NCBI RefSeq assembly: GCF_018499875.1
Contig: NZ_JAHBAY010000004.1
Span: forward strand, 1-64,000
DNA from: Kineosporia corallincola
GTDB lineage: Bacteria > Actinomycetota > Actinomycetes > Actinomycetales > Kineosporiaceae
Direction of reading: 5' to 3'
DNA length: 64,000 nucleotides
Below, piece after piece: positions 25,101 to 46,180 of this stretch (within the stretch, counting starts at the first letter, position 1; each line of letters starts with the position of its first letter). The notes under the pieces are model-generated. The model was not told where the DNA came from, did not search any database, and saw nothing but the letters and a program-made list of their open reading frames with translations. The position numbers and the translations under genes were made by a program.

Positions 25101-26510
25101 TTGAGTTCCGCACCCACGCCGCCGTTCTCGCCCCGTCGCAATGCCAAATACACGATTTTGGACGCCGACGGGCCGCTACCGCTCGACATGATCCGCGGCG
25201 TCCCCGCGATCATGCGCAACCCGCTGGCCTGGCTGGAGCGCGTCGTCGACCGGCACGGCGACCTGGTCGCGTTCCCCATGCCGACCAGCTCGGTGCTGCT
25301 GGTGAACACGCCCGCCGGTGCGCGTCACGTGCTCCAGCGCAACCACCGCAACTACAGCAAGGCCACGATCCAGTACGGCGCCCTGTCGCTCGTCACCGGC
25401 TCGGGGCTGCTCACCTCGGACGGCGAGGTGTGGCGCCGGCACCGCCGCACCCTCCAGCCGGCGTTCCACCACGGCGGTCTCGACCAGGTCGCGGTGTCGA
25501 CCGTGGCCGCCGGTGAGCAGCTGCGCGCGGCCTGGGACCGGGTGCCGCCCTACGCGCCGATCGACGCCGAGGCGGCGATCATGCAGGCCATGCTCACGGT
25601 GGTCGGCAGAACCCTGTTCGCCGACGACCTCTCCTCCGCCGGTGAGGAACTCGTGCACGCCGTCGACCGGGCCCTGCGCCAGGTGATCGCCCGGGCCACC
25701 AACCCGCTCGCCGTCGGCCCGCTGTCCCGGCTGCCCACCCCGTCCGCGCTCCGGATGCGTTCCGCCGTGGCCACTCTCGACCGGATCACGGCCGACATCG
25801 TGGCCCGCCGCCGGGCCCAGGGGGTGGGGGAGGACGACGCGGACCTGCTCGCCGTGCTGCTGCGGGCGGGGGCGGACGAGTCGGGCGCCGCCTGGATGAC
25901 CGAGCGCGAGATCCGCGACGAGCTGGTCACCCTGGTCATCGCCGGGCACGAGACGGTCGCCTCCAGCCTGGTCTGGACGCTGCACCTGCTGGCCGACGCC
26001 CCGCAGGTGCAGGAGAGGCTGTACGCCGAGCTCGACCAGGTGCTCGCCGGGCGCCCACCGGCCTGGGGCGACGTGCCCGCCCTGCGCTACACCCGGGCGG
26101 TGGTCGACGAGGCGCTGCGCCTGTACCCGCCGGCCTGGGTGATCACCCGCCGGGCCACCGGGCCGGACACGGTCGACGGGGTGGACGTGCCCGAGGGCAC
26201 CCTGATCATCGTGAGTCCCTGGCTGCTGCACCGCAGCGCCGCGAACTGGCCCGAGCCGGAGCGTTTCGACCCGGAGCGATTCCTCGGCGTGGACCGCAAT
26301 CCGGCCTACCTGCCCTTCGGCGCCGGCCCCCGGCTCTGCATCGGCCGGGACTTCGCGCTGGTCGAGTCGGTGCTGCTGCTGGCGACCCTGCTGCGTGACC
26401 GGGCCGTGCGCCGTCCGGCCGGGGTCCGGCCACCCCGGCTGGAGGCGCTCGTCACGCTGAGGCCGAAGCGTGGGCTGCCCATGGCGCTGGTCCCGCGCAT
26501 CCCGTCCTGA
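25101..26510 (+). CDS. Cytochrome P450
   Basis: A 469-residue P450. The I-helix oxygen motif is AGHETVAS, the ExxR motif is EALR, and the haem loop is FGAGPRLCIGRD (Cys near residue 413). The N-terminus has no membrane anchor, so it is a soluble bacterial enzyme. Its length and PERFDPERFL segment resemble the CYP102/CYP4-like fatty-acid group more than the short class I enzymes; a reductase is not adjacent. TTG start one base after the GroES-like stop, so translation is coupled. Substrate unknown. Confidence 0.95.
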   Translation: MSSAPTPPFSPRRNAKYTILDADGPLPLDMIRGVPAIMRNPLAWLERVVDRHGDLVAFPMPTSSVLLVNTPAGARHVLQRNHRNYSKATIQYGALSLVTGSGLLTSDGEVWRRHRRTLQPAFHHGGLDQVAVSTVAAGEQLRAAWDRVPPYAPIDAEAAIMQAMLTVVGRTLFADDLSSAGEELVHAVDRALRQVIARATNPLAVGPLSRLPTPSALRMRSAVATLDRITADIVARRRAQGVGEDDADLLAVLLRAGADESGAAWMTEREIRDELVTLVIAGHETVASSLVWTLHLLADAPQVQERLYAELDQVLAGRPPAWGDVPALRYTRAVVDEALRLYPPAWVITRRATGPDTVDGVDVPEGTLIIVSPWLLHRSAANWPEPERFDPERFLGVDRNPAYLPFGAGPRLCIGRDFALVESVLLLATLLRDRAVRRPAGVRPPRLEALVTLRPKRGLPMALVPRIPS

Positions 26511-26795
26511 ATGGATATTCCCGAGCCATGAAAAGGTGTCAGTAATTCGGGGTGATTAAGGCCGCTTCGGTAGGTGACGGAATGTTTTCTGAGCGCGATT
26601 CTGTTTCAGGCCCGGCGTTCTGGGCGGTGATCGCTACGTCACGGATTGACAACTTCTGTGCCTTTATCGGCAAGTCCGTTGCCGAGAGAGGCGCTCATGG
26701 TGGAGGCTTTCTCTTGCCTCGCCGGGAGCAAATGCGGGCTGCGTGTCAGGGACGCAGCGCGGGTTTATCCCGGCGGGGTCTTTGTCTGCCCGGGC
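26511..26795. other. AT-richer convergent gap with several hairpins
   Basis: This 285-base gap between convergent genes has more A/T than its neighbours and no convincing ORF. It contains hairpins CGGCAA-GTCCG-TTGCCG (26668-26684), GAGGC/GCCTC (26703-26720), GCCGGG/CCCGGC (26721-26774) enclosing GCTGCGT/ACGCAGC (26738-26758), and a TTGACA at 26646-26651. It may be a terminator zone or a structured RNA on the plus strand; no known class was matched. Confidence 0.45.
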
Positions 26796-36446: not shown

Positions 36447-37436
36447 TCAGTCGCCGGTGCCGACGGAGAGCAGCGCGTCTTGCACAATGCGTTGCGCCGC
36501 CATGGCGTCCTGCCGGTCCTGGGCCTCCAGCAGGGCAGGCACGTCCAGCCGGTCCAGCGCCCGGTGCAGGGCCTTGAGCGTGCGGAGCGACGTCTTCACG
36601 GCGTCGACCGGGTCCTCGCGGAACGGGAACTGGTCGAGCTGCCAGACGCCGTCCCAGTTGTTCTGCCGCAGCACGTGGAAGAACTCCAGGATCTCGATCA
36701 GGTGCACCGACCCGACCACCAGGTCGTCGTCCCAGCCCCGCAGGTTGTCGTTCACGTCCATCCCGTACAGGCGGCCGTGGTCGATGATCAACTGCGCGGC
36801 GTCCGCCGGCGACTCCCCGCCGTACAGCGAGTGACCGAAATCGAGCAGCACCCCGACGTTGTCGAGACCGATCTGCTCGATGCCGAGCAGGGTGCGGGCG
36901 GCCGAGTCCCAGGTCATCTTCACCCGCGGCTCACGTGGCTTGTACTCGATGGCGAACCGCAGGTCCGGGTGCGCGCCGGCCAGCTCGCGCATGCCGTCGA
37001 CGGCCAGCGCCCACAGCTGCTGATGGTTCACCTGGAACGGGTAGTCCCAGCCGTCCTGCCCCGGCCAGATCTTGACGTAGTCCGCCCCGAGTTCCCGCAC
37101 CACGCCCGCCGCCTCGTGCATCAGATCGAGTGCGGAAGCCCGCGCCGCCGGGTCCGGATTGGTGAACGCCCCGCGAGAATGCCTGCGCAGATAGATCTCC
37201 GGGGTGATGCCGATGGCCGTCAGGCCGGCCGCCTTGAGCGCGTCCTTCACCTCCTCCAGCGTCACCCCCGGCGTGAACGGGTAGTTCAGGTCGACCACCG
37301 ACAGCTCGCCCACCGACCCGGCCAGCCCGATCGCCTCCAGCGTGGTGCGAGGCGGCCCGTAGCCGTCCACGGCGTACCGGTCGAGGTAGGAGGCGAAGTG
37401 CCACAGGCCGGCTCCGAAACGCGGATACTCGCTCAT
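36447..37436 (-). CDS. TIM-barrel sugar isomerase/epimerase
   Basis: A 329-residue xylose-isomerase-like TIM barrel (PF01261). Metal and acid ligands are suggested by [35 protein letters not shown] and [12 protein letters not shown]. Starts at the ATG whose first bases overlap the kinase stop; longer in-frame starts lie inside the kinase gene and are rejected. It is the last gene of the sugar operon, next to an FGGY kinase and split transketolase. In the known D-apiose pathway a PF01261 isomerase makes apulose; that role is inferred here. Confidence 0.92.
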
Positions 37437-38890
37437 CGTTGCACCTTTCGAGATTGATGGACGGCGTTCAGCCAGGCCTCGCGCAGCGCCGTCCGGTCTT
37501 GTCGGGGCATGAAATCGTCGTAGCTCAGCGGACCGACCCGCCCCCACCGCGCCCGCGCGGCCAGCAGCCCCGCACCGACCGCCGAGAGGTCGCGCTCGCG
37601 GGCTCTCCGGACCGGTACGCCGCTGATGTCGGCCTGGAGCTGCATGAGCAGGTCGCTGGCACTGGCTCCGCCGTCGGCCAGGATCGCGCCGGCGCTGGGC
37701 ATCGAGCGGACCACGGCGTCCACCTGCAACGCCACAGATTCCACTGCTGCCCGGGCCAGCTGCGGCAACCGGGTGCCCAGGGAGACCCCGCTGATCAGAC
37801 CCTGCGCCGAGTCGTCCCACCAGGGCGCGGCCAGCCCACCGAAGGCGGGCACGATGTGCACCCCCTCACTCTTCCCGGTTTCCCCTGCCAGCCGGACGAT
37901 CTGCTCCGGCGTGGTGCCGAAGAGCTCGGCCAGCCAGGTCAGGGTGGCGCCGCTGGAGCGGATGTTCCCCTCCAGCGCCACCTGTGGCTCGGGATCGGCC
38001 CAGGCGATGGTGCGGCAGACCGCCTCCGTGCCGAGCGCCGCGGCGTCTCCCGTGCCCCGGCCTGCCGTCCGCATGACCGAAGAACCCGTGCCGTAGGTGA
38101 CTTTCGCCGCTGAATGTGACCCCGCACGATCACCCACCCCCTTCTCGCCCGCCCCGTGCGCGTACAGCGCCGCATGGGAATCCCCCAGAACGGCCCGCAC
38201 CTGGCCACCCGCCAACGGCCCGGCGGTCACCGTCCCCAGCTTTCCCTCCGATGAAACAATAACGGGCAGAACGGCTTCCGGAACCTCAAATATCTGCAAA
38301 AGCTCCGCATTCCACTGTCCGGTGCACAGGTCGAGAAGCTGTGTGCGCGAGGCGTTCCCGGCCTCCATCACGTGCTGCCCGGTCAGGGCGAACATCAGCC
38401 AGGAGTCCACCGTGCCGGCCGCCAGCCGCCCGGCCCGGCTCAGCCGCCGGTCCGGGTCGTGCCGGTCCAGCAGCCAGGTCAGCTTGGCGGCGCTGAACAT
38501 CGGGTCGAGCGGCAGCCCGGTGATCCGCCGGATCTCGTTCCGGTACGGCCGGAGTCGCTCGCACACCCCGGCCGCCCGCTGGTCCTGCCAGCCGAGCAAG
38601 GCGTCGACCGGCCTGCCCGTGGCCCGGTCCCAGAGCAGGGCCGACTCGCGCTGGGTGCTGAGCCCGATGCCGGCCAGGTCCCCGGCCGCGAGACCGTCCA
38701 GAACGGTGGCGGTCGCGGCCAGAACGCTCCCGGCGACGTCCTCAGGTCTTTGTTCCACCCAGCCGGGACGCGGGTAACCGATCCCGACCGGCGCCGAGGC
38801 GGAGCGCACCACCCGCCCGGACCGGTCGAGCAGCAGGCACTTGGTGGCGCTGGTGCCCTGGTCCACGGCCAGCACCAGATCGCCCGGCAT
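37433..38890 (-). CDS. FGGY-family sugar kinase
   Basis: A 485-residue carbohydrate kinase. The ATP/phosphate loop is [17 protein letters not shown], the sugar-binding region is near [10 protein letters not shown], and the second phosphate loop is [10 protein letters not shown], with [18 protein letters not shown] at the C-terminal FGGY-type adenine site. It resembles glycerol and xylulose kinases about equally. It is translationally coupled to the transketolase C subunit (TGATG overlap) and to the isomerase (ATGA overlap). In an apiose-type pathway it would phosphorylate apulose; xylulose, erythrulose or ribulose are alternatives. Confidence 0.95.
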
Positions 38891-39840
38891 CAGGCCAGCT
38901 CGGCGGCGGCCGCCGCGATGTGCCCGGCGGTCAGGCCGAAATGCTCCAGCAGATAAGCGGTGTCACCGGTCGGGGCGAACTCCCGGCGCGACCCCAGCAT
39001 CCGCATCGGCACCGGCCGGGCCTGCCGCAGGTTCACCTCGCCGACCGCGGCCCCCAGGCCTCCGGTGATCGTGGCCTCCTCCACGGTCACGATGCCGCGG
39101 GTCTGCCCGGCCGCCCGGCGCACGCACTCCTCGTCCAGCGGGGCCACGGTGGCCATGTTGATCACCCGGGCCTGGATTCCGCGCACCGCCAGCAGCTCGG
39201 CGGCGGACAGGGCACGCGACACCGTCGAGCCGATCGCGACGATGCTGACGTCGTCACCCGGCCGCAGTTCCTGGGCCACGCCGAACTCGAACCGGGTGCC
39301 CGGGGGAGTCACCGACGGCACCCTGAACCGGCCCACCCGCAGAAACACCGGCGTGGCCGCGGAGGCCGCCCAGCGCACGGCCTCCCGGGTCTGCTCCGGG
39401 TCGGCCGGCACCACCACCCCCAGCCCGGCCACGGCCCGCAACCAGGACAGGTCCTCGATCGAGTGGTGGGTCGGGCCGAGCTCGCCGTAGGCCAGGCCCG
39501 GGCTCATCCCGCACAGCACCACCGGTGCCTGGCCGTAGGCCACGTCGGCCTTGATCTGCTCCAGGGCCCGCCCGGTGAGGAAAGGGGCGGCCCCGCAGAC
39601 GAACGGCACGTAGCCGCTGAGCGCCAGACCGGCCCCGACCCCGACCATGTCCTGCTCGGCGATGCCCACGTTGATCAGCCGGTCGGGAAACCGGTCGCGG
39701 AACGCCACCAGATTGCTGGAGCCCACCGAGTCGTTGCAGACGGCCACGATCCGCTCGTCCCGTTCCGCCAGGGCGATCAGCTCGTCGGCGAAAGCGACCC
39801 GGCAGTCGTGCGTCTCGGGCGTTCTGACGGTGGTGCTCAT
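38890..39840 (-). CDS. Transketolase C-terminal subunit
   Basis: A 316-residue protein equal to the pyrimidine-binding and C-terminal domains of transketolase. NVGIAEQDMVGVGAGLALSG carries the Glu that activates TPP, and GPTHHSIEDLSWLRAV and RVGRFRVP follow in the usual order. The ATG at 39840 overlaps the stop of the N-terminal subunit by 4 bases. The split form and its neighbours match the two-subunit apulose-4-phosphate transketolase (AptA/AptB) described for apiose use; the exact substrate is inferred. Confidence 0.93.
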   Translation of the reverse strand: MSTTVRTPETHDCRVAFADELIALAERDERIVAVCNDSVGSSNLVAFRDRFPDRLINVGIAEQDMVGVGAGLALSGYVPFVCGAAPFLTGRALEQIKADVAYGQAPVVLCGMSPGLAYGELGPTHHSIEDLSWLRAVAGLGVVVPADPEQTREAVRWAASAATPVFLRVGRFRVPSVTPPGTRFEFGVAQELRPGDDVSIVAIGSTVSRALSAAELLAVRGIQARVINMATVAPLDEECVRRAAGQTRGIVTVEEATITGGLGAAVGEVNLRQARPVPMRMLGSRREFAPTGDTAYLLEHFGLTAGHIAAAAAELA

Positions 39841-40724
39841 ACCTGCTGCTCCTCCAGCTCGTGCAGGGCGGTGGCCACCTGCTCGCCGCTCGGGACCTTG
39901 TGGTGCCACTCCACCCGGTCCTCCATGAACGAGATGCCCTTGCCCTTGACCGTTCTCGCGATCACACAGGTCGGGAGCGGGTACCGGGTGCCGAGCGCCT
40001 CGTACAGGGCCAGGTGGTCGTGGCCGTCCAGCTCGATCACGTTCCAGCCGAACGCGGCCCACTTGTCCGCCAGTGGTTCCAGCGTCACGGTGTCCTCGGT
40101 GCGGGCGCCCTGCTGCAACCGGTTGCGGTCGACGATCGCGGTCAGGTTGCCCAGTTTCCGGTGCCCGGCCGTCATCGCGGCCTCCCAGTTGCTGCCCTCC
40201 TGGAGCTCCCCGTCGCCGAGCACCACGAACACCCGCCGCGCCGAGCCGGCCAGCACCCCGGCCACCGCCATCCCCACCGCGACCGGCAGACCGTGCCCGA
40301 GCGGACCCGTGTTGGTCTCCACCCCAGGGACTTTCACCCGGTTCGGATGGCCGTTCAGGGCCGACAGCGGCTGGGCGAAGGTGTCCAGCTCCGCCTCGGC
40401 GAAGAATCCGGCGGCGGCCAGAGTGGCGTAGAGCGCCCCGGCGCTGTGTCCCTTGCTCAGCACCAGCCGGTCCCGGTCGGGCAGATCGGGACGTTCCGGG
40501 TCGATCGCCAGCACCCCGAACACCAGCGTGGTGAGGATGTCGAGCACCGACATGTCACCGCCGACGTGCCCGAGCCCGGCCCGGTTGATCATGCGGATGT
40601 CGTTGGCCCGCAGGCGGTCCGCCCGAACGGACAGCAGTCGGGCCCGGCCTGGTCGGTCGGCGGCGGCCAGTTCCTCGCGGAACCGGCGCCAGGCCGCAGC
40701 GCCGGTGGGATCGGCGACCAGCAT
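39837..40724 (-). CDS. Transketolase N-terminal subunit
   Basis: A 295-residue TPP-binding half of a split transketolase. The TPP/metal motif is VLGDGELQEGSNWEAAM with the metal-ligating Asn in IVDRNRLQQGA; GHVGGDMSVLDILTTL and LVLSKGHSAGALYA are the diphosphate-binding His regions. Complete and paired with the downstream C-terminal subunit. It lies 28 bases after the substrate-binding protein gene, in the same operon. Confidence 0.94.
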   Translation of the reverse strand: MLVADPTGAAAWRRFREELAAADRPGRARLLSVRADRLRANDIRMINRAGLGHVGGDMSVLDILTTLVFGVLAIDPERPDLPDRDRLVLSKGHSAGALYATLAAAGFFAEAELDTFAQPLSALNGHPNRVKVPGVETNTGPLGHGLPVAVGMAVAGVLAGSARRVFVVLGDGELQEGSNWEAAMTAGHRKLGNLTAIVDRNRLQQGARTEDTVTLEPLADKWAAFGWNVIELDGHDHLALYEALGTRYPLPTCVIARTVKGKGISFMEDRVEWHHKVPSGEQVATALHELEEQQV

Positions 40725-40752
40725 CTCCAGATGCCTCCTTCTCGTCGGTGAC

Positions 40753-41790
<1,038 letters not shown>

Positions 41791-42870
41791 TCAGAGCGCC
41801 CGTTCGGCCAGAGATGTCTGTAGGCGCTGCTGGGCGTGCTCGGTGATCACGGCGAACACGATGACGGCCCCCTTCACCACGGACTGCCAGAAGGTCGAGA
41901 CCCCGACCAGCACCAGCCCGTCGGCCAGGAACCCGATCACGAAGGCGCCCAGCACCGTGCCGATGATCGTGCCGCGCCCGCCGGACAGCGCGGTGCCGCC
42001 GAGCACCGCCGCGGCGATCGCGTTCAGCTCGTAGGTGGTCGCGGTGTCCGGGTAGGCCGCACCCAGTTCCGAGGTCAGCAGCAACCCGGCCAGGGCGGCG
42101 CAGGCCCCGCTGATCGCGTACACCGCGATCTTGATCCGGGCGGTGCGGATGCCCGCCAGCTCGGCGGCCCGCTCGTTGCCGCCGACCGCGTACACCCGGC
42201 GGCCGAACGGGGTGCGGGTGGTGACGACGACGGCCAGTACGGCCACCGCCACCATGATCCAGACCGCGACCGGGATGCCCAGCCACCGGTCCACGCCGAT
42301 CACGTGGAAGCCGGTGTTGCCCCGTTCCGGCGTGCCGGCCAGGTTCGGGTAGGTGCCGCCATTGCTCCGCAGTTGGGCGAAACCCCTTGCCACGTAGAGC
42401 ATGCCGAGCGTCGCGATGAACGGAGCCACCCTGAACCGGGTGATCACCACGCCGTTCACCCAGCCGACCAGGGCGCCGAGGGCGATGCCGGCCAGGATCA
42501 CCGCACCGACGGAGAGGAACAGTGTGCCGTCGCCCGGCAGCGCCAGGCCGGTGAACAGCAGCCCGCCGCAGATCATGCCGGCCAGCCCGGCGATCGAGCC
42601 GACCGACAGATCGATGCCCCCGGTCAGGATCACGAAGGTGACGCCGATGGCCAGGATCGCGTTGATGGCCACGTGCTTGGTCATCAGGATCAGGTTGCTG
42701 GAGCTCAGGTACTCGCCGGAGATCGACCCGAAGAGGACCATCAGCAGCACCAGCACCACCACGGTGCGGCCCCGCAACAGCAGCAGCGCCACCCGGGCCG
42801 CGGAACCGGGCGGGCTGCTTGGGCTGGGCGGGCGGGTGCTGACGGCGGTGGCGACCTCGGTGTCGCTCAT
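41791..42870 (-). CDS. Sugar ABC transporter permease (RbsC type)
   Basis: A 359-residue membrane protein with about ten helices. LTGGIDLSVGSIAGLAGMIC and NGVVITRFRVAPFIATLGML are RbsC hallmarks, and the cytoplasmic coupling segment is RRVYAVGGNERAAELAGI. The stop of the ATPase gene overlaps its start by 4 bases. An N-terminal Pro/Ser tail of about 30 residues precedes the first helix. Confidence 0.95.
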   Translation of the reverse strand: MSDTEVATAVSTRPPSPSSPPGSAARVALLLLRGRTVVVLVLLMVLFGSISGEYLSSSNLILMTKHVAINAILAIGVTFVILTGGIDLSVGSIAGLAGMICGGLLFTGLALPGDGTLFLSVGAVILAGIALGALVGWVNGVVITRFRVAPFIATLGMLYVARGFAQLRSNGGTYPNLAGTPERGNTGFHVIGVDRWLGIPVAVWIMVAVAVLAVVVTTRTPFGRRVYAVGGNERAAELAGIRTARIKIAVYAISGACAALAGLLLTSELGAAYPDTATTYELNAIAAAVLGGTALSGGRGTIIGTVLGAFVIGFLADGLVLVGVSTFWQSVVKGAVIVFAVITEHAQQRLQTSLAERAL

Positions 42871-44399
42871 GACTGGACCTCCGGGACGGTGTGCAGGGCC
42901 TGCTCCGACGCCGACGCGGCGACCAGGGCCTCTTCGGTCAGTTCACCGGCGCCGAACTCGGCGGTCAGCCGGCCGGCGGCCATCACCAGCACCCGGTCGG
43001 CGATCGCGGTGACCTCGGCCAGCTCGGACGAGATGAACAGCACGCCGAACCCGGCCTGGGCCAGACCCGCCATCAGCTCGGCGATCTGGCTCTTCGCCCC
43101 CACGTCCACACCCCGGGTCGGCTCGTCGAGCAGCAGCACCACCGGGTCGGTGAGCATGGCCCGGGCCAGCACCACCTTCTGCTGGTTGCCACCGCTCAGC
43201 GAGGTGACGGGCAGCCCGAGATCGCCTGACCTGATGGCCAGTTCGTCCACCTTGGCGCGCGCGGTGTCGCGCTGCGCGCCACGCCGGAACAGCCCGCCGC
43301 GGGTGAGCCGCCCGAGGGTGGAGAGCACGATGTTGTCGCGCACCGACATGCTCTGCACCAGGCCGTCACGCTGCCGGTCCTCCGGCACCAGGGCGAGACC
43401 GGCGGCCAGCCGGGCGCGCACCGTGCCCTTCGGTTCCAGGTGCCCCTTCACCCGCACGGTGCCGGAGGCGGTGGGCCGCAGACCGATCAGCGCCTCCATC
43501 AGCTCGGTGCGTCCTGCCCCCATCAGGCCGTAGATGCCGACCACCTCACCCGCCCGCACCCGGAAGCTCACGTCGTCCACCCGCGGTCGGCTGGGACCGG
43601 CCACGGTGAGATGGTCCACCTCCAGCAGGGTTTCGCCGGTTGCGGAGCCGTTGCGGGTGAACAGGCTGTCCGGGTCGCGGCCCACCATCTGCCGCACGAT
43701 CCAAGCGGTGTCGGTGTTGCGCATCGTCTCGTGGGCCACCAGCCGGCCGTCACGCAGCACCGTGACGTGGTCGCCGATCCGGCGGAACTCATCGAGCTTG
43801 TGCGAGATGTAGATGATCGTCACGTCGTCGGCGAGCAGGTCACCCATCACCGAGAACAGCACGTCCACCTCGTGACTGGACAACGCGGAGGTGGGCTCGT
43901 CCATGATCAGGATGCGCACGTCCTCCAGTAGCACCCGGGCGATCTCGACGAGTTGCTGCTGACCGATGGGCAGTTCACCGACCAGCCGGTCCGGGTTCAG
44001 GCGTGCCTGGCCGAGCCGCTCCAGCACCACGCGGGCCCGCTCGCGCTGGGCCTTCAGGTCGCTGAGGCCACGGCTGCGCAGTTCCCTTCCGGCGAAGAGG
44101 TTCTCGGCGATCGAGAGGTTCGGGAACAGGCTGAGTTCCTGGTGGATGATGCCGATCCCGAGTCGCATGGCGGTGCGCGGGCCGTCGATCGCCACCGGCT
44201 CGCCGTCCAGCAGAACGCGTCCGGCACTGGGGCGTTCGGCGCCGCAGAGGATCCTCATCAGCGTGGACTTGCCCGCGCCGTTCTCGCCCACCAGCACGTT
44301 GACCGCGCCGCGGTAGGCGTGGAAGGTGACCTCGCGCAGTGCGTGCACCCCGCCGTAGTTCTTGCTCACCGACTCGGCGGTGAGCACCGCGCGGCTCAC
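42867..44399 (-). CDS. Sugar ABC transporter ATP-binding protein (RbsA type)
   Basis: A 510-residue double ABC ATPase. The first domain has the Walker A GENGAGKST, signature LPIGQQQLVEIARV and Walker B ILIMDEPTSAL. The second has the altered Walker A GLMGAGRTEL usual for RbsA/XylG, signature LSGGNQQKVVLARA and Walker B LLLDEPTRGVD. It overlaps both the permease and the DUF2291 gene by 4 bases. Confidence 0.96.
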   Translation of the reverse strand: MSRAVLTAESVSKNYGGVHALREVTFHAYRGAVNVLVGENGAGKSTLMRILCGAERPSAGRVLLDGEPVAIDGPRTAMRLGIGIIHQELSLFPNLSIAENLFAGRELRSRGLSDLKAQRERARVVLERLGQARLNPDRLVGELPIGQQQLVEIARVLLEDVRILIMDEPTSALSSHEVDVLFSVMGDLLADDVTIIYISHKLDEFRRIGDHVTVLRDGRLVAHETMRNTDTAWIVRQMVGRDPDSLFTRNGSATGETLLEVDHLTVAGPSRPRVDDVSFRVRAGEVVGIYGLMGAGRTELMEALIGLRPTASGTVRVKGHLEPKGTVRARLAAGLALVPEDRQRDGLVQSMSVRDNIVLSTLGRLTRGGLFRRGAQRDTARAKVDELAIRSGDLGLPVTSLSGGNQQKVVLARAMLTDPVVLLLDEPTRGVDVGAKSQIAELMAGLAQAGFGVLFISSELAEVTAIADRVLVMAAGRLTAEFGAGELTEEALVAASASEQALHTVPEVQS

Positions 44400-45097
44400 G
44401 CCCCCACCTCCAGACTGACCGGAACGATCATCACCGTTCCCGGGACCAGTGACGAGAACGCGCCGCTGAAGCTGACTTCCGCGCCCTCCAGGTCGGCCGG
44501 GTCGTCCGGCAGCCGAGCGAGGACGTCCGTGCGCACCCGGTCGTTCAGCCGGGTGGCCACGTCGGCGTAGTCGAGCTGGTTCGCGAAGTCGCTGAAACCG
44601 ATGAAGCCCACCGCGTCTCGCAGGGCGGTGCCGGCGATCACCTGACCGGTGCCGATGCTCACGTCGTCCGTGGTTCCCTCGAGACGCACGGTGAGCGGTC
44701 GCGAGGGTGAGTCGGCATCGACCGCGGTGACCGTGCCGGATCCCTTGATCAGGTAGGAGAACGCCCCGCCGACCCCCGCCCGGTGGCCGTACTGCTCGCC
44801 CGCCGCGTCCGGGTCGGCGTCGATCGCGGCCAGCAGGGTGTTCGCGTCGACCGCCTGATCCTGAACCGCCGGAAGCACTTTCGAGTCCCAGACCTGGTCG
44901 ACGTAGACGGCCGGGTCGAAGGTCCCACGACCGGCCGCGGCCTGTGCGTCGCTCCCGCTCTCGATCGTGTAGATGCCGGGGACGTGCGAGCAGGCACCGG
45001 TGAGGACGAGGACCGCGACGACCGTGGCAGCGGTCAGAAGTCGCCGTGCGGGTCGGCTCACAGCAAAGTGAATATCCATTCGGCGCTGATTGGACAT
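44396..45097 (-). CDS. DUF2291 lipoprotein
   Basis: A 233-residue lipoprotein (lipobox LVLTGACS) of the DUF2291 family, known as a companion of RbsA/B/C-type importers. The mature part carries FDPAVYVDQVWDSKVLPAV, which is the family's conserved opening. First gene of the operon. The start is uncertain: ATG at 45097 or 45079; neither has a good ribosome binding site, and both place the operator-like repeat 45071-45082 inside or at the start of the coding region. Likely extracytoplasmic helper of the transporter; mechanism unknown. Confidence 0.88.
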   Translation of the reverse strand: MSNQRRMDIHFAVSRPARRLLTAATVVAVLVLTGACSHVPGIYTIESGSDAQAAAGRGTFDPAVYVDQVWDSKVLPAVQDQAVDANTLLAAIDADPDAAGEQYGHRAGVGGAFSYLIKGSGTVTAVDADSPSRPLTVRLEGTTDDVSIGTGQVIAGTALRDAVGFIGFSDFANQLDYADVATRLNDRVRTDVLARLPDDPADLEGAEVSFSGAFSSLVPGTVMIVPVSLEVGA

Positions 45098-45194
45098 AGC
45101 CCGATCATGAATCCGGGCAACCCGGATGTCAATGGGTGTTCCGGACCTCGACGCAGTGTCATGCTGAATAACTCGCCGATGTCGAATGGATATG
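45071..45194. promoter_or_regulatory. Divergent control region with facing operator-like repeats
   Basis: AATATCCATTCG (45071-45082) and CGAATGGATATG (45183-45194) are inverted copies (11 of 12 bases) 112 bases apart, flanking the promoters of the DUF2291-led operon and the SorC-type regulator. Spacing and symmetry suit a regulator that loops DNA or represses both directions. Inferred. Confidence 0.6.
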
Positions 45195-45202
45195 TGCCTG
45201 AC

Positions 45203-46180
45203 ATGACCGAAGCGTCGCCACGTCTGTCCGCCGGCCAGGTCCGGCTCCTCACCAAGGTGGCCCGGATGTATCACGAGCGAGGGCTGCGGCAGCCGGAAAT
45301 AGCCACCAGTCTCCATATTTCGCAACCCCGGGTGTCTCGTCTGCTGAAGCGTGCCGTCGAGCTGGGCATCGTGCGCACCATCGTGATCTCGCCGCGCGGC
45401 GTCTACGCCGACCTGGAGGAGGCGGTCGAGCGTAGGTACGGCGTGAGCGAGGTGGTGGTCGCCGACACCGGTGACGAGACCGACGAGCAGCGCATCCTGC
45501 CGGCCCTGGCCTCGGCCGCCGCCGTCTACCTGGAGACGACGCTGACCGGCGGCGAACGGGTGGGCATCTCGTCGTGGAGCTCCACCCTGCTGGCCGCGGT
45601 GGAGGCGATGCAGCCGCGCCCGGTACGGGCCACCGACGAGGTGGTGCAGGTGCTGGGAGGCATGGGGGTGGTCACGGCCCAGGCCACGGCCACCCGGCTG
45701 ACCGGCCGGCTGGCGCAGGTGACCGGCGGCAACGCCGTGTACCTGCCGGCCCCCGGGCTGGTCGCGTCCTCCCTCACCCGCGACGGGCTGGTCGCCGACC
45801 AGGCCATAGCCGACGTGCTGCGCGCCTGGCGGCACCTCACCCTGCTGCTGGCCGGCATCGGCAGTCTGGAGCCCTCACCGTTGCTGCGACAGAGCGGAAA
45901 CGCCATCGCCGAGACCGAAATGGGCCATCTGCGGCGTCTCGGCGCGGTCGGTGACGTGTGCCTGCGCTTCTTCGACGAGCACGGGGCGCACATCACCACA
46001 CCGTTCGAGGACCGTCTCGTCGGCATCGGCGCCGACGTGTTGCGGCGTGTTCCCCGCCGGGTCGGGGTGGCCGGTGGGGAACGCAAGTACAACGCGATCC
46101 GGGCAGCCTTGCTCGGTGGCTGGGTGAACGTGCTGATCACCGACCACCGGGTGGCGGAACGCCTGGCCGCGGAGGGCTGA
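45203..46180 (+). CDS. SorC/DeoR-type sugar-binding transcriptional regulator
   Basis: A 325-residue regulator. The N-terminal helix-turn-helix (residues about 8-60) includes RGLRQPEIATSLHISQPRVS, and the C-terminal sugar-binding domain begins VSEVVVADTGDETDEQRILP with GGERVGISSWSSTLLAAVEA (phosphosugar loop) and LLLAGIGSLEPSPLLRQSG. In-frame ATGs at 45179 and 45161 are possible starts. It is divergent from the transporter/enzyme operon and is the natural controller of it, responding to the phosphorylated sugar. Confidence 0.93.
   Translation: MTEASPRLSAGQVRLLTKVARMYHERGLRQPEIATSLHISQPRVSRLLKRAVELGIVRTIVISPRGVYADLEEAVERRYGVSEVVVADTGDETDEQRILPALASAAAVYLETTLTGGERVGISSWSSTLLAAVEAMQPRPVRATDEVVQVLGGMGVVTAQATATRLTGRLAQVTGGNAVYLPAPGLVASSLTRDGLVADQAIADVLRAWRHLTLLLAGIGSLEPSPLLRQSGNAIAETEMGHLRRLGAVGDVCLRFFDEHGAHITTPFEDRLVGIGADVLRRVPRRVGVAGGERKYNAIRAALLGGWVNVLITDHRVAERLAAEG

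What the first reader, a model, noticed from the sequence alone, without database searches (positions are those of the whole stretch)
36447..46180. Candidate D-apiose-type branched-sugar operon
The sequence shows one leftward operon: DUF2291, RbsA, RbsC, RbsB-like importer, split transketolase (two subunits), FGGY kinase and a PF01261 isomerase, divergent from a SorC-type regulator. Isomerase plus FGGY kinase plus two-subunit transketolase is the enzyme set of the published non-oxidative D-apiose route (apiose, apulose, apulose-4-phosphate, then transketolase cleavage). Ordinary pentose operons do not need a dedicated split transketolase. The gene order and the SorC regulator may be a new actinobacterial version. 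The sugar remains inferred.
Basis: partly seen in the sequence, partly recalled or inferred. Interest (0 to 1): 0.75.

Follow-up and report, generated by a model that had tools for sequence, protein, structure and literature searches.

The report
Plant-sugar apiose operon in Kineosporia
A soil actinobacterium carries a full set of genes that looks made to import and use apiose, a branched sugar of plants, and following its likely control switch across other bacteria points to an unrecognised kind of enzyme that may free this sugar.

Summary
In detail: eight overlapping or closely spaced minus-strand genes (DUF2291, RbsA, RbsC, binding protein, split transketolase, FGGY kinase, PF01261 isomerase), divergent from a SorC-type regulator. 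The D-apiose reading holds. The isomerase is 78% identical to PDB 3ktc, which is the isomerase of the Pectobacterium cluster that print calls the apiose cluster. The binding protein matches 5ibq at all 16 pocket positions compared. The kinase differs from glycerol kinases at two pocket positions as published apulose kinases do. The transketolase groups with apiose-cluster pairs. Novelty of the operon does not hold: gene set and SorC-type regulator are shared with Pectobacterium and, isomerase apart, E. coli SE15; only the order differs, and Actinoplanes relatives share it. So: a new member of a known kind. Beyond the finding, I infer an operator with one match (up to 2 mismatches) in the 8.2 Mb genome, at this operon. 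The motif marks apiose genes in Actinomycetota, Enterobacterales and one Deinococcus; in seven enterobacterial genomes all eight perfect sites lie at such genes. In actinobacteria, extra sites examined precede nucleoside-hydrolase-like genes (PF07632, PF01156): candidate apiosidases. This genome has no PF07632. Nothing was assayed.

The parts
36447..37436 (-). ApsI-type D-apiose isomerase (PF01261, 329 aa)
   Evidence: 78% identical over 322 aa to PDB 3ktc; 3ktc is 98.8-100% identical to the isomerase in seven Pectobacterium loci
37433..38890 (-). AplK-type FGGY kinase (apulose kinase, inferred), 485 aa
   Evidence: PF00370, PF02782; keeps R83/E84/W103/D245, has M and S at the GlpK positions Y135 and F270, motifs GDSHAALY and YGTGSSVM as in other cluster kinases incl. 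E. coli SE15 AplK (GlpK numbering recalled)
38890..39840 (-). AptB-type transketolase C half, 316 aa
   Evidence: PF02779, PF02780; groups with apiose-cluster transketolases
39837..40724 (-). AptA-type transketolase N half (thiamine-diphosphate domain), 295 aa
   Evidence: PF00456; nearest solved relative is the N-terminal component of a split-chain transketolase, 6yak; tree
40753..41730 (-). CUT2 sugar-binding protein, 325 aa
   Evidence: best PDB hits 5ibq/4ry0, 395.7 and 394 bits; 16 of 16 compared pocket positions identical to 5ibq
41791..42870 (-). RbsC-type permease
   Evidence: PF02653
42867..44399 (-). RbsA-type double ATPase
   Evidence: two PF00005 stretches
44396..45061 (-). DUF2291 lipoprotein, probable transporter accessory; start at GTG 45061 or ATG 45097
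   Evidence: PF10054; the ATG at 45097 belongs to the conserved operator stretch and in L031 the same ATG meets a stop after five codons (by eye), so 45061 is preferred
45069..45093 (-). predicted operator of the SorC-type regulator (CCAATCAGCGCCGAATGGATATTCA)
   Evidence: only match with up to 2 mismatches in the 8.2 Mb genome, control 0; conserved in 14 of 14 aligned upstream regions; found beyond the phylum
45183..45193 (+). second copy of the operator half (CGAATGGATAT) before the regulator gene
   Evidence: inverted copy of 45072-45082; with up to one mismatch 3 matches in the window, 0.13 expected
45203..46180 (+). SorC/DeoR-type sugar-binding regulator, 325 aa, divergent
   Evidence: PF04198; relatives in the Actinoplanes, Pectobacterium and E. 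coli SE15 clusters

Best explanation
This is a D-apiose uptake and catabolism operon of a Kineosporia species. The binding protein, RbsC and RbsA (with the DUF2291 lipoprotein as an accessory of unknown role) import D-apiose. The isomerase makes D-apulose; the FGGY kinase makes apulose 4-phosphate; the two-subunit transketolase cleaves it to dihydroxyacetone phosphate and moves the two-carbon unit to glyceraldehyde 3-phosphate, giving xylulose 5-phosphate. The divergent SorC-type regulator, probably answering to a pathway intermediate, controls transcription at an operator overlapping the start of the operon. Shown here: genes, order, orthology, pocket residues, conservation of the motif. Inferred: substrate, enzyme activities, effector, operator binding. 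The chemistry of the pathway is recalled from the published apiose work (Carter et al. 2018, not held).
For: Isomerase 78% to 3ktc; 3ktc is 100% to the P. betavasculorum and 99.4% to the P. carotovorum cluster isomerase. PMC13001218 (passages): the Pectobacterium cluster includes apsI, a D-apiose isomerase; P. carotovorum WPP14 and the cluster-positive E. coli and E. fergusonii strains tested grew on D-apiose, K-12 did not. Same gene set in P. carotovorum DSM 30168 and, isomerase apart, E. coli SE15. Binding-protein pocket identical to 5ibq at 16 of 16 positions, to E. coli RbsB at 11 of 16. Kinase pocket changes shared with SE15 and Pectobacterium kinases and absent from 3 of 3 GlpKs. Cluster transketolases lie in one clade at 100/98. 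Same operator motif in Enterobacterales and actinobacteria.
Against: No activity was tested. The kinase is 36-39% identical to Pectobacterium and SE15 AplK, about as far as from a GlpK of its own genome (36%), and its tree leaves the deepest forks open. The transketolase clade also holds one long-branched outsider (L125). The E. coli SE15 binding protein, from a lineage that grows on apiose, has a quite different pocket, so the pocket is no universal apiose mark. By recall one of the two entries of the nearest solved binding protein holds ribose, so the importer may also take ribose. The genome has no match to the Pfam apiosidase family and no PF07632 gene, so the source of free apiose is unknown. 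That 3ktc is the assayed ApsI and that 5ibq holds apiose are recalled, not seen here.
Confidence: 0.9

Rival explanations
1. It is a ribose or D-arabinose operon like that of Thermotoga maritima: a ribose-type importer, an isomerase, a ribulose kinase and a transketolase to process pentose phosphates.
For: T. maritima's ribose operon includes two predicted D-arabinose enzymes and transketolase and is induced by ribose and almost equally by xylose (PMC3750489, passages). A distant DUF2291 relative is T. maritima TM0957, solved as 2f4i (E 2e-6); that TM0957 lies in that operon is recalled. The binding-protein pocket keeps most ribose contacts.
Against: None of the nine window proteins is a ribokinase or RbsD. 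The isomerase is of the Pectobacterium ApsI type. The regulator is SorC-type, not LacI-type, and its operator motif is that of clusters of published apiose users.
Confidence: 0.05
2. It handles another branched or unusual pentose or tetrose (for example erythrulose or a branched ketose), with the same enzyme types retuned.
For: Kinases and transketolases of this kind occur in clusters with oxidoreductases or an L-fucose/L-arabinose-isomerase-like gene in place of ApsI, so the core module may serve more than one entry sugar.
Against: The window has the ApsI entry enzyme at 78% identity to the Pectobacterium one, and the E. coli cluster type with two oxidoreductases is linked in print to growth on apiose.
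Confidence: 0.04
3. The kinase is a glycerol kinase and the operon a patchwork without a single pathway.
For: The best NCBIfam match of the kinase is GlpK, 370.5 bits, below its cut-off of 590.35.
Against: The genome has two GlpK-like genes elsewhere with the full glycerol pocket; the window kinase has M and S at the GlpK Y135 and F270 positions. Gene order is conserved across genera.
Confidence: 0.01

Closest known systems
D-apiose cluster of Pectobacterium (apsI, aplK, aptA, aptB, CUT2 importer); treated for P. carotovorum WPP14 in PMC13001218 (passages), original work recalled
   Same: Same nine gene kinds; against P. carotovorum DSM 30168 isomerase 78%, binding protein 63%, permease 52%, ATPase 47%, DUF2291 30%, transketolase halves 49% and 37%, kinase 36%, regulator 42%; same operator type
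   Different: Order: there the binding protein comes first, then DUF2291, ATPase, permease, transketolases, kinase, isomerase, with the regulator at the far end on the other strand; here DUF2291 is first and the regulator divergent from it
D-apiose cluster of E. coli SE15 (L004)
   Same: Kinase, AptA/AptB, CUT2 importer with DUF2291, regulator of the same family (40%), operator motif at two places
   Different: Two SDR oxidoreductases and no isomerase; binding-protein pocket differs
Asanoa, Actinoplanes, Paractinoplanes and Symbioplanes clusters (15 loci: L029-L032, L034, L035, L037-L042, L044-L046)
   Same: Same order and divergent regulator; isomerase 83-87%
   Different: In 11 of the 15 a PF07632 gene follows the isomerase, and in some another lies between regulator and DUF2291; the window genome has none
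T. maritima ribose operon (PMC3750489, passages)
   Same: Ribose-type ABC importer, transketolase and two further sugar enzymes in one operon
   Different: LacI-type regulator and ribokinase; published as ribose, its extra enzymes as D-arabinose enzymes

Membership tests
Non-oxidative D-apiose pathway (ApsI-AplK-AptAB) | ApsI-type isomerase | tested here: met
   78% over 322 aa to 3ktc, which is the Pectobacterium cluster isomerase
Non-oxidative D-apiose pathway (ApsI-AplK-AptAB) | Kinase in the AplK group with its substrate-pocket residues | tested here: inconclusive
   Pocket motifs shared, but in the tree window-type and Pectobacterium/SE15-type kinases are two clades with unresolved deep forks next to GlpK
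Non-oxidative D-apiose pathway (ApsI-AplK-AptAB) | Two-subunit transketolase grouping with AptA/AptB | tested here: met
   38-row clade at 100/98 with Pectobacterium and SE15; it also holds one very long outlier, S. clavuligerus L125
Non-oxidative D-apiose pathway (ApsI-AplK-AptAB) | Apiose-binding importer | tested here: inconclusive
   Pocket identical to 5ibq; the ligand of 5ibq is recalled, not seen; SE15 pocket differs
Non-oxidative D-apiose pathway (ApsI-AplK-AptAB) | Enzyme activities and growth on D-apiose | not testable with these tools
   needs assays
Xylose isomerase operon | XylA/XylB equivalog scores | tested here: not met
   xylA_Arthro 68.6 bits against cut-off 447; XylB 166.6 against 380.25
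Ribose/D-arabinose operon of the T. maritima type | Ribokinase and LacI-type RbsR in the operon | tested here: not met
   neither is among the nine proteins
Glycerol kinase | Full glycerol pocket (R83, E84, W103, Y135, D245, F270; recalled numbering) | tested here: not met
   M at Y135 and S at F270; below the GlpK cut-off

The most novel reading that the evidence does not exclude
The SorC-type regulator of this operon defines one apiose regulon that reaches from Actinomycetota to Enterobacterales and Deinococcus, with operator ATTCA-N4-TGAAT-N2-ATATTCA. In actinobacteria this regulon includes an unrecognised class of apiosidases with the nucleoside-hydrolase fold: secreted PF07632 (DUF1593/Sde182-like) enzymes and intracellular PF01156-like enzymes, which cleave apiofuranosides much as nucleoside hydrolases cleave ribofuranosides.
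Probability: 0.5. Interest if true: 0.72.

Novelty: new member of a known kind. Interest (0 to 1): 0.48.

Why it matters
Apiose caps plant compounds such as apiin and sits in the boron cross-link of rhamnogalacturonan II (recalled). The operon extends a confident apiose assignment to many actinobacteria whose genes score as ribose importer, xylose isomerase, glycerol kinase and transketolase. The shared motif gives a way to find scattered apiose genes: it tied isomerases without kinase or transketolase nearby, one of them on a plasmid, to regulator, importer and, in four of the seven genomes, transketolase genes elsewhere. It also points to protein families named for cellulose binding or nucleoside hydrolysis as candidate apiosidases, which a single enzyme assay could settle.

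Tried and rejected
Apiosidase of the Pfam family PF13204 in this genome: none. PF07632 in this genome: none. A third near-match of the operator half in the window, at 26497-26520, lies across the stop codon of a P450 gene and was rejected as chance. Rooting the kinase tree on XylB and LyxK gave very long outgroup branches, so I do not use its deepest forks. The consensus was written after seeing the hits, so its 139-to-10 split is partly circular; the seven-genome search is the independent test, since the unlinked sites found there had not been used. One search failed by a script error and was mended. Paper searches (all ten allowed): no held paper has 'apulose' or DUF2291; three hold both 'apiose' and a word beginning 'sorc', none about this by its title; none of the eight listed for 5IBQ, 4RY0 or 3KTC was opened. 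Of 21 papers with any of DUF1593, PF07632, Sde182 or apiosidase none holds DUF1593 or PF07632, 20 hold apiosidase, and the one Sde182 match is the gene number Sde_1825; two of the 21 were searched for passages, the rest seen as a listing. The library holds few subscription papers. The seven other stretches of the window scanned for families beside the operon show no sugar gene.
Full report
Observation. Eight on the minus strand run DUF2291, ATPase, permease, binding protein, transketolase N half, transketolase C half, FGGY kinase, isomerase. Five neighbours overlap (4, 4, 4, 1 and 4 bp); the two gaps are 60 bp (permease to binding protein) and 28 bp (binding protein to N half). The regulator is divergent. 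The genome is 8.2 Mb in 53 contigs. The isomerase of Kineosporia rhizophila JCM 9960 is 97% identical, so I take the window to be from a Kineosporia.

Isomerase. The best PDB match is 3ktc at 590.7 bits; the next is a xylose isomerase at 69.1 bits. The 3ktc letters are 100% identical to the isomerase of P. betavasculorum (L061), 99.4% to P. carotovorum DSM 30168 (L058) and 78% to the window's. In the Pectobacterium loci the isomerase ends a cluster of binding protein, DUF2291, ATPase, permease, transketolase halves, kinase, isomerase, with the regulator on the other strand. PMC13001218 (passages) says the pathway was described before in P. carotovorum WPP14, that this cluster has apsI for a D-apiose isomerase, and that P. 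carotovorum and the cluster-positive Escherichia strains tested grew on D-apiose while K-12 did not. I recall, and could not check, that 3ktc is the assayed ApsI.

Kinase. Identity to SE15 AplK is 39%, to Pectobacterium 36%, to the two GlpKs of its own genome 35 and 36%, to E. coli GlpK 33%. In the tree, actinobacterial cluster kinases with that of Deinococcus form a 31-row clade (99/97), Pectobacterium and relatives with SE15 and Klebsiella a 6-row clade (89/96), GlpKs a 3-row clade (99/98); the order among these and three rhizobial rows is open. The pocket is clearer. At the glycerol contacts of E. coli GlpK (numbering recalled) all 19 cluster kinases compared, the window's included, keep R83, E84, W103 and D245 but have M or L for Y135 and S for F270; all three GlpKs keep every contact. 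A strict motif pair (GDSHAA and GTGSSxM) matches 64 of 76 kinase sequences; the 64 include three copies of the window gene and two of the K. rhizophila gene. The 12 misses are three GlpKs, XylB, LyxK, one other kinase-like hit (L024) and six cluster kinases: five with ADSHAALRG or ADSHSALYH, and L009, which has GDSHAALYG and GTGSSVM but fails the pattern before the second.

Transketolase. The tree holds the window, cluster pairs, four split transketolases of other contexts (L121, L122, L124, L125) and two full-length ones: 43 rows. The cluster pairs together with L125, an outlier on a branch of 6.65, form a 38-row clade at 100/98; the other three fall outside. The window sits with K. rhizophila, Asanoa and Actinoplanes, then Streptomyces and Deinococcus.

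Binding protein. At 16 positions around the E. coli RbsB sugar site (positions recalled), 23 of 60 rows, among them the window and 5ibq, read PNFFDDRSKNRWNFDQ; one of the 23 (L002) is the window's own gene again. Pectobacterium differs at one position. RbsB reads SNFFNDRSIARFNFDQ. SE15 reads NNYYDNRHNNRGNIDL, so the pattern is not a universal apiose mark. I recall that 5ibq was solved with apiose and 4ry0, the same protein, with ribose; reading the titles through a fold search failed.

Distribution. The scan of genome contigs gave 374 relatives and kept the best 80; the counts that follow refer to these 80. Kinase and both transketolase halves lie by the isomerase in 55, part of them in 3, none in 22; the 22 are all Enterobacterales. 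Of the 55, 49 also have the regulator, 40 the binding protein and 38 DUF2291; loci cut by contig ends count as misses. Seventeen of the 55 are Micromonosporaceae, and 15 of these have the window's order. In K. rhizophila the operon lies beside what looks by eye like the same CAP-type neighbour, but the SorC gene between them is absent; that genome has a 56% homologue elsewhere. Two further genomes of the genus (G002, G005) have no match to the regulator and no isomerase match above 31% identity.

Operator. I aligned regions upstream of DUF2291 from 14 loci, chosen from the 18 with this arrangement (15 Micromonosporaceae, three Kineosporia; L037, L039, L041 and L044 left out). TTGACA and, some 35 bp on, CCARTC-N6-GAATGGATAT are in 14 of 14. 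A weight matrix from these sites scored high in Pectobacterium, Pantoea, SE15 and Klebsiella too. With the consensus AWTCRNNNNYGAATNNATATKCA and up to two mismatches, 91 loci (1.78 Mb) hold 139 sites near the start of a cluster gene (60 inside to 350 before) and 10 elsewhere; the pattern read backwards gives 0 and 1; 76 of 91 loci have a site near a start, 15 do not, among them Rhizobium SL42 and Agrobacterium. Matches on both strands of one palindrome count apart and many loci are close relatives, so the sites are not independent, and the consensus was written.

Independent test. I searched seven whole enterobacterial genomes whose isomerase locus has no kinase or transketolase (in one, Pantoea coffeiphila, importer genes are there). 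Eight sites have no mismatch and all eight lie at apiose genes, seven of them at regulator, binding-protein or transketolase genes away from the isomerase. Of 29 sites with one mismatch, 22 were examined and 16 lie at such genes; several of these overlap a perfect site. The 95 with two mismatches were not examined; 132 sites in all, against 16 for the reversed pattern. In Pantoea sp. SOD02 the isomerase is on plasmid pSOD02, while regulator, binding protein and DUF2291 are on the 4.2 Mb contig; its transketolase was not located. In the window's genome there is one site with up to two mismatches, the one before this operon; control 0. In P. carotovorum there are 24, of which 4 at the cluster; the other 20 have two mismatches and were not examined. 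That the SorC-type protein binds the motif is inferred.

Nucleoside-hydrolase-like genes. In the sister genome G004 the search gave three sites, all without mismatch: this operon, and two others each at or just before the start of a PF07632 gene. In Actinoplanes subtropicus an extra pair of sites (one mismatch each) lies at a PF01156 gene followed by importer genes. Two further two-mismatch sites in Paractinoplanes toevensis were not examined. Of the ten 'elsewhere' sites seven, in six loci (L048, L052, L093, L100, L102, L108), lie 110 to 180 bp before the aligned part of a PF01156-like gene; those in L091, L106 and L004 remain unexplained. Among the 80 loci 26 carry such a gene at E up to 1e-20: 17 of PF07632 type, in 11 of them directly after the isomerase, and 9 of PF01156 type only.

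Co-occurrence. In 394 genomes of the class, PF07632 is in 6 and the isomerase (E up to 1e-60) in 14, both in 4; hypergeometric P 1.5e-5, ignoring kinship. Three of the four are one family and, by their coordinates, the same genomes as L033, L036 and L047; the PF07632 match of the fourth, G025, is weak. In all four, both genes lie on one contig within about 20 kb. In 16 genomes, most chosen because their locus had a PF07632 gene, 14 have the family. Leaving out Pectobacterium, a Pantoea and the two without, 12 genomes have 24 matches over 100 bits; by my reading of the coordinates 20 lie within 20 kb of the isomerase and two more are those at the operator in G004. Against: P. carotovorum has one strong and one weak PF07632 match away from the cluster, with no operator match listed beside them; four Micromonosporaceae loci of the window's order (L032, L034, L044, L045) show none in the stretch held, and the window's genome has none.

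Elsewhere, a Croceibacterium plasmid has a PF07632 gene about 30 bp after its isomerase; a Selenomonas plasmid has one between a beta-glucoside transporter and GH1, near an alpha-L-rhamnosidase; that of Croceicoccus lies among hexuronate genes, those of Adhaeribacter and Pantoea At-9b among genes without clear link (At-9b has an isomerase on another plasmid). The only solved relative found for a PF07632 protein is named a cellulose-binding protein (2yhg); those of the L108 PF01156-type protein are nucleoside hydrolases. By eye both PF07632 proteins of G004 begin with signal-peptide-like stretches and the Actinoplanes PF01156-type one does not. A furanoside-cleaving fold fits apiose, which plants hold as a furanoside (recalled). 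Hence the candidate apiosidase reading; no assay shows it.

Other entry modules. E. coli SE15, Agrobacterium H13-3, S. meliloti Rm41 and Deinococcus gobiensis have oxidoreductase genes in place of ApsI; a Klebsiella record has an L-fucose/L-arabinose isomerase family gene. SE15, Deinococcus and Klebsiella have the motif; Agrobacterium has none at this threshold and Rm41 one two-mismatch site.

Verdict. D-apiose operon, 0.9; new member of a known kind. The most interesting part lies just outside it: a regulon that crosses phyla and a candidate apiosidase family.

Noticed in passing
window 45069-45093 and 45183-45193: Predicted SorC operator, also found at apiose genes in Enterobacterales and one Deinococcus; sole match with up to 2 mismatches in the 8.2 Mb genome.
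   Followed up: yes
L198 4605-6163; L199 7401-9005; L029 10985-12517; L201 8923-10377: PF07632 (nucleoside-hydrolase-like) genes at the operator or next to the isomerase: candidate apiosidases.
   Followed up: partly
L093 5771, L108 1126, L048 14300, L100 7598, L052 4156, L102 3814: PF01156-like genes 110 to 180 bp after an operator site in apiose loci.
   Followed up: partly
L069 and L157 (isomerase, on pSOD02); L143 (regulator, binding protein, DUF2291, on the 4.2 Mb contig) of Pantoea sp. SOD02: The isomerase is on a plasmid while regulator and importer genes are on another replicon, with the same operator motif.
   Followed up: partly
L092 1246-3108: K. rhizophila keeps operon and operator but has no SorC gene between DUF2291 and the CAP-type gene; a 56% homologue lies elsewhere (L134).
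   Followed up: partly
L120 1-11645: A small Klebsiella record holds importer, DUF2291, regulator, split transketolase, FGGY kinase and an L-fucose/L-arabinose-isomerase-like gene in place of ApsI, with the same operator motif.
   Followed up: partly
Thermotoga maritima control genome; PMC3750489: T. maritima has a Pfam apiosidase match, and its published ribose operon contains transketolase and two further sugar enzymes; it may deserve a test on apiose.
   Followed up: no
L027 16676-17320; L119 3365-4006; L123 1-96: A ribB (3,4-dihydroxy-2-butanone-4-phosphate synthase) gene within about 10 kb of the transketolase cluster in three Rhizobiaceae; reason unknown.
   Followed up: no
window 44396-45061: A DUF2291 gene goes with the importer in 38 of 55 core loci, role unknown; only distant solved relative TM0957 (2f4i).
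   Followed up: no
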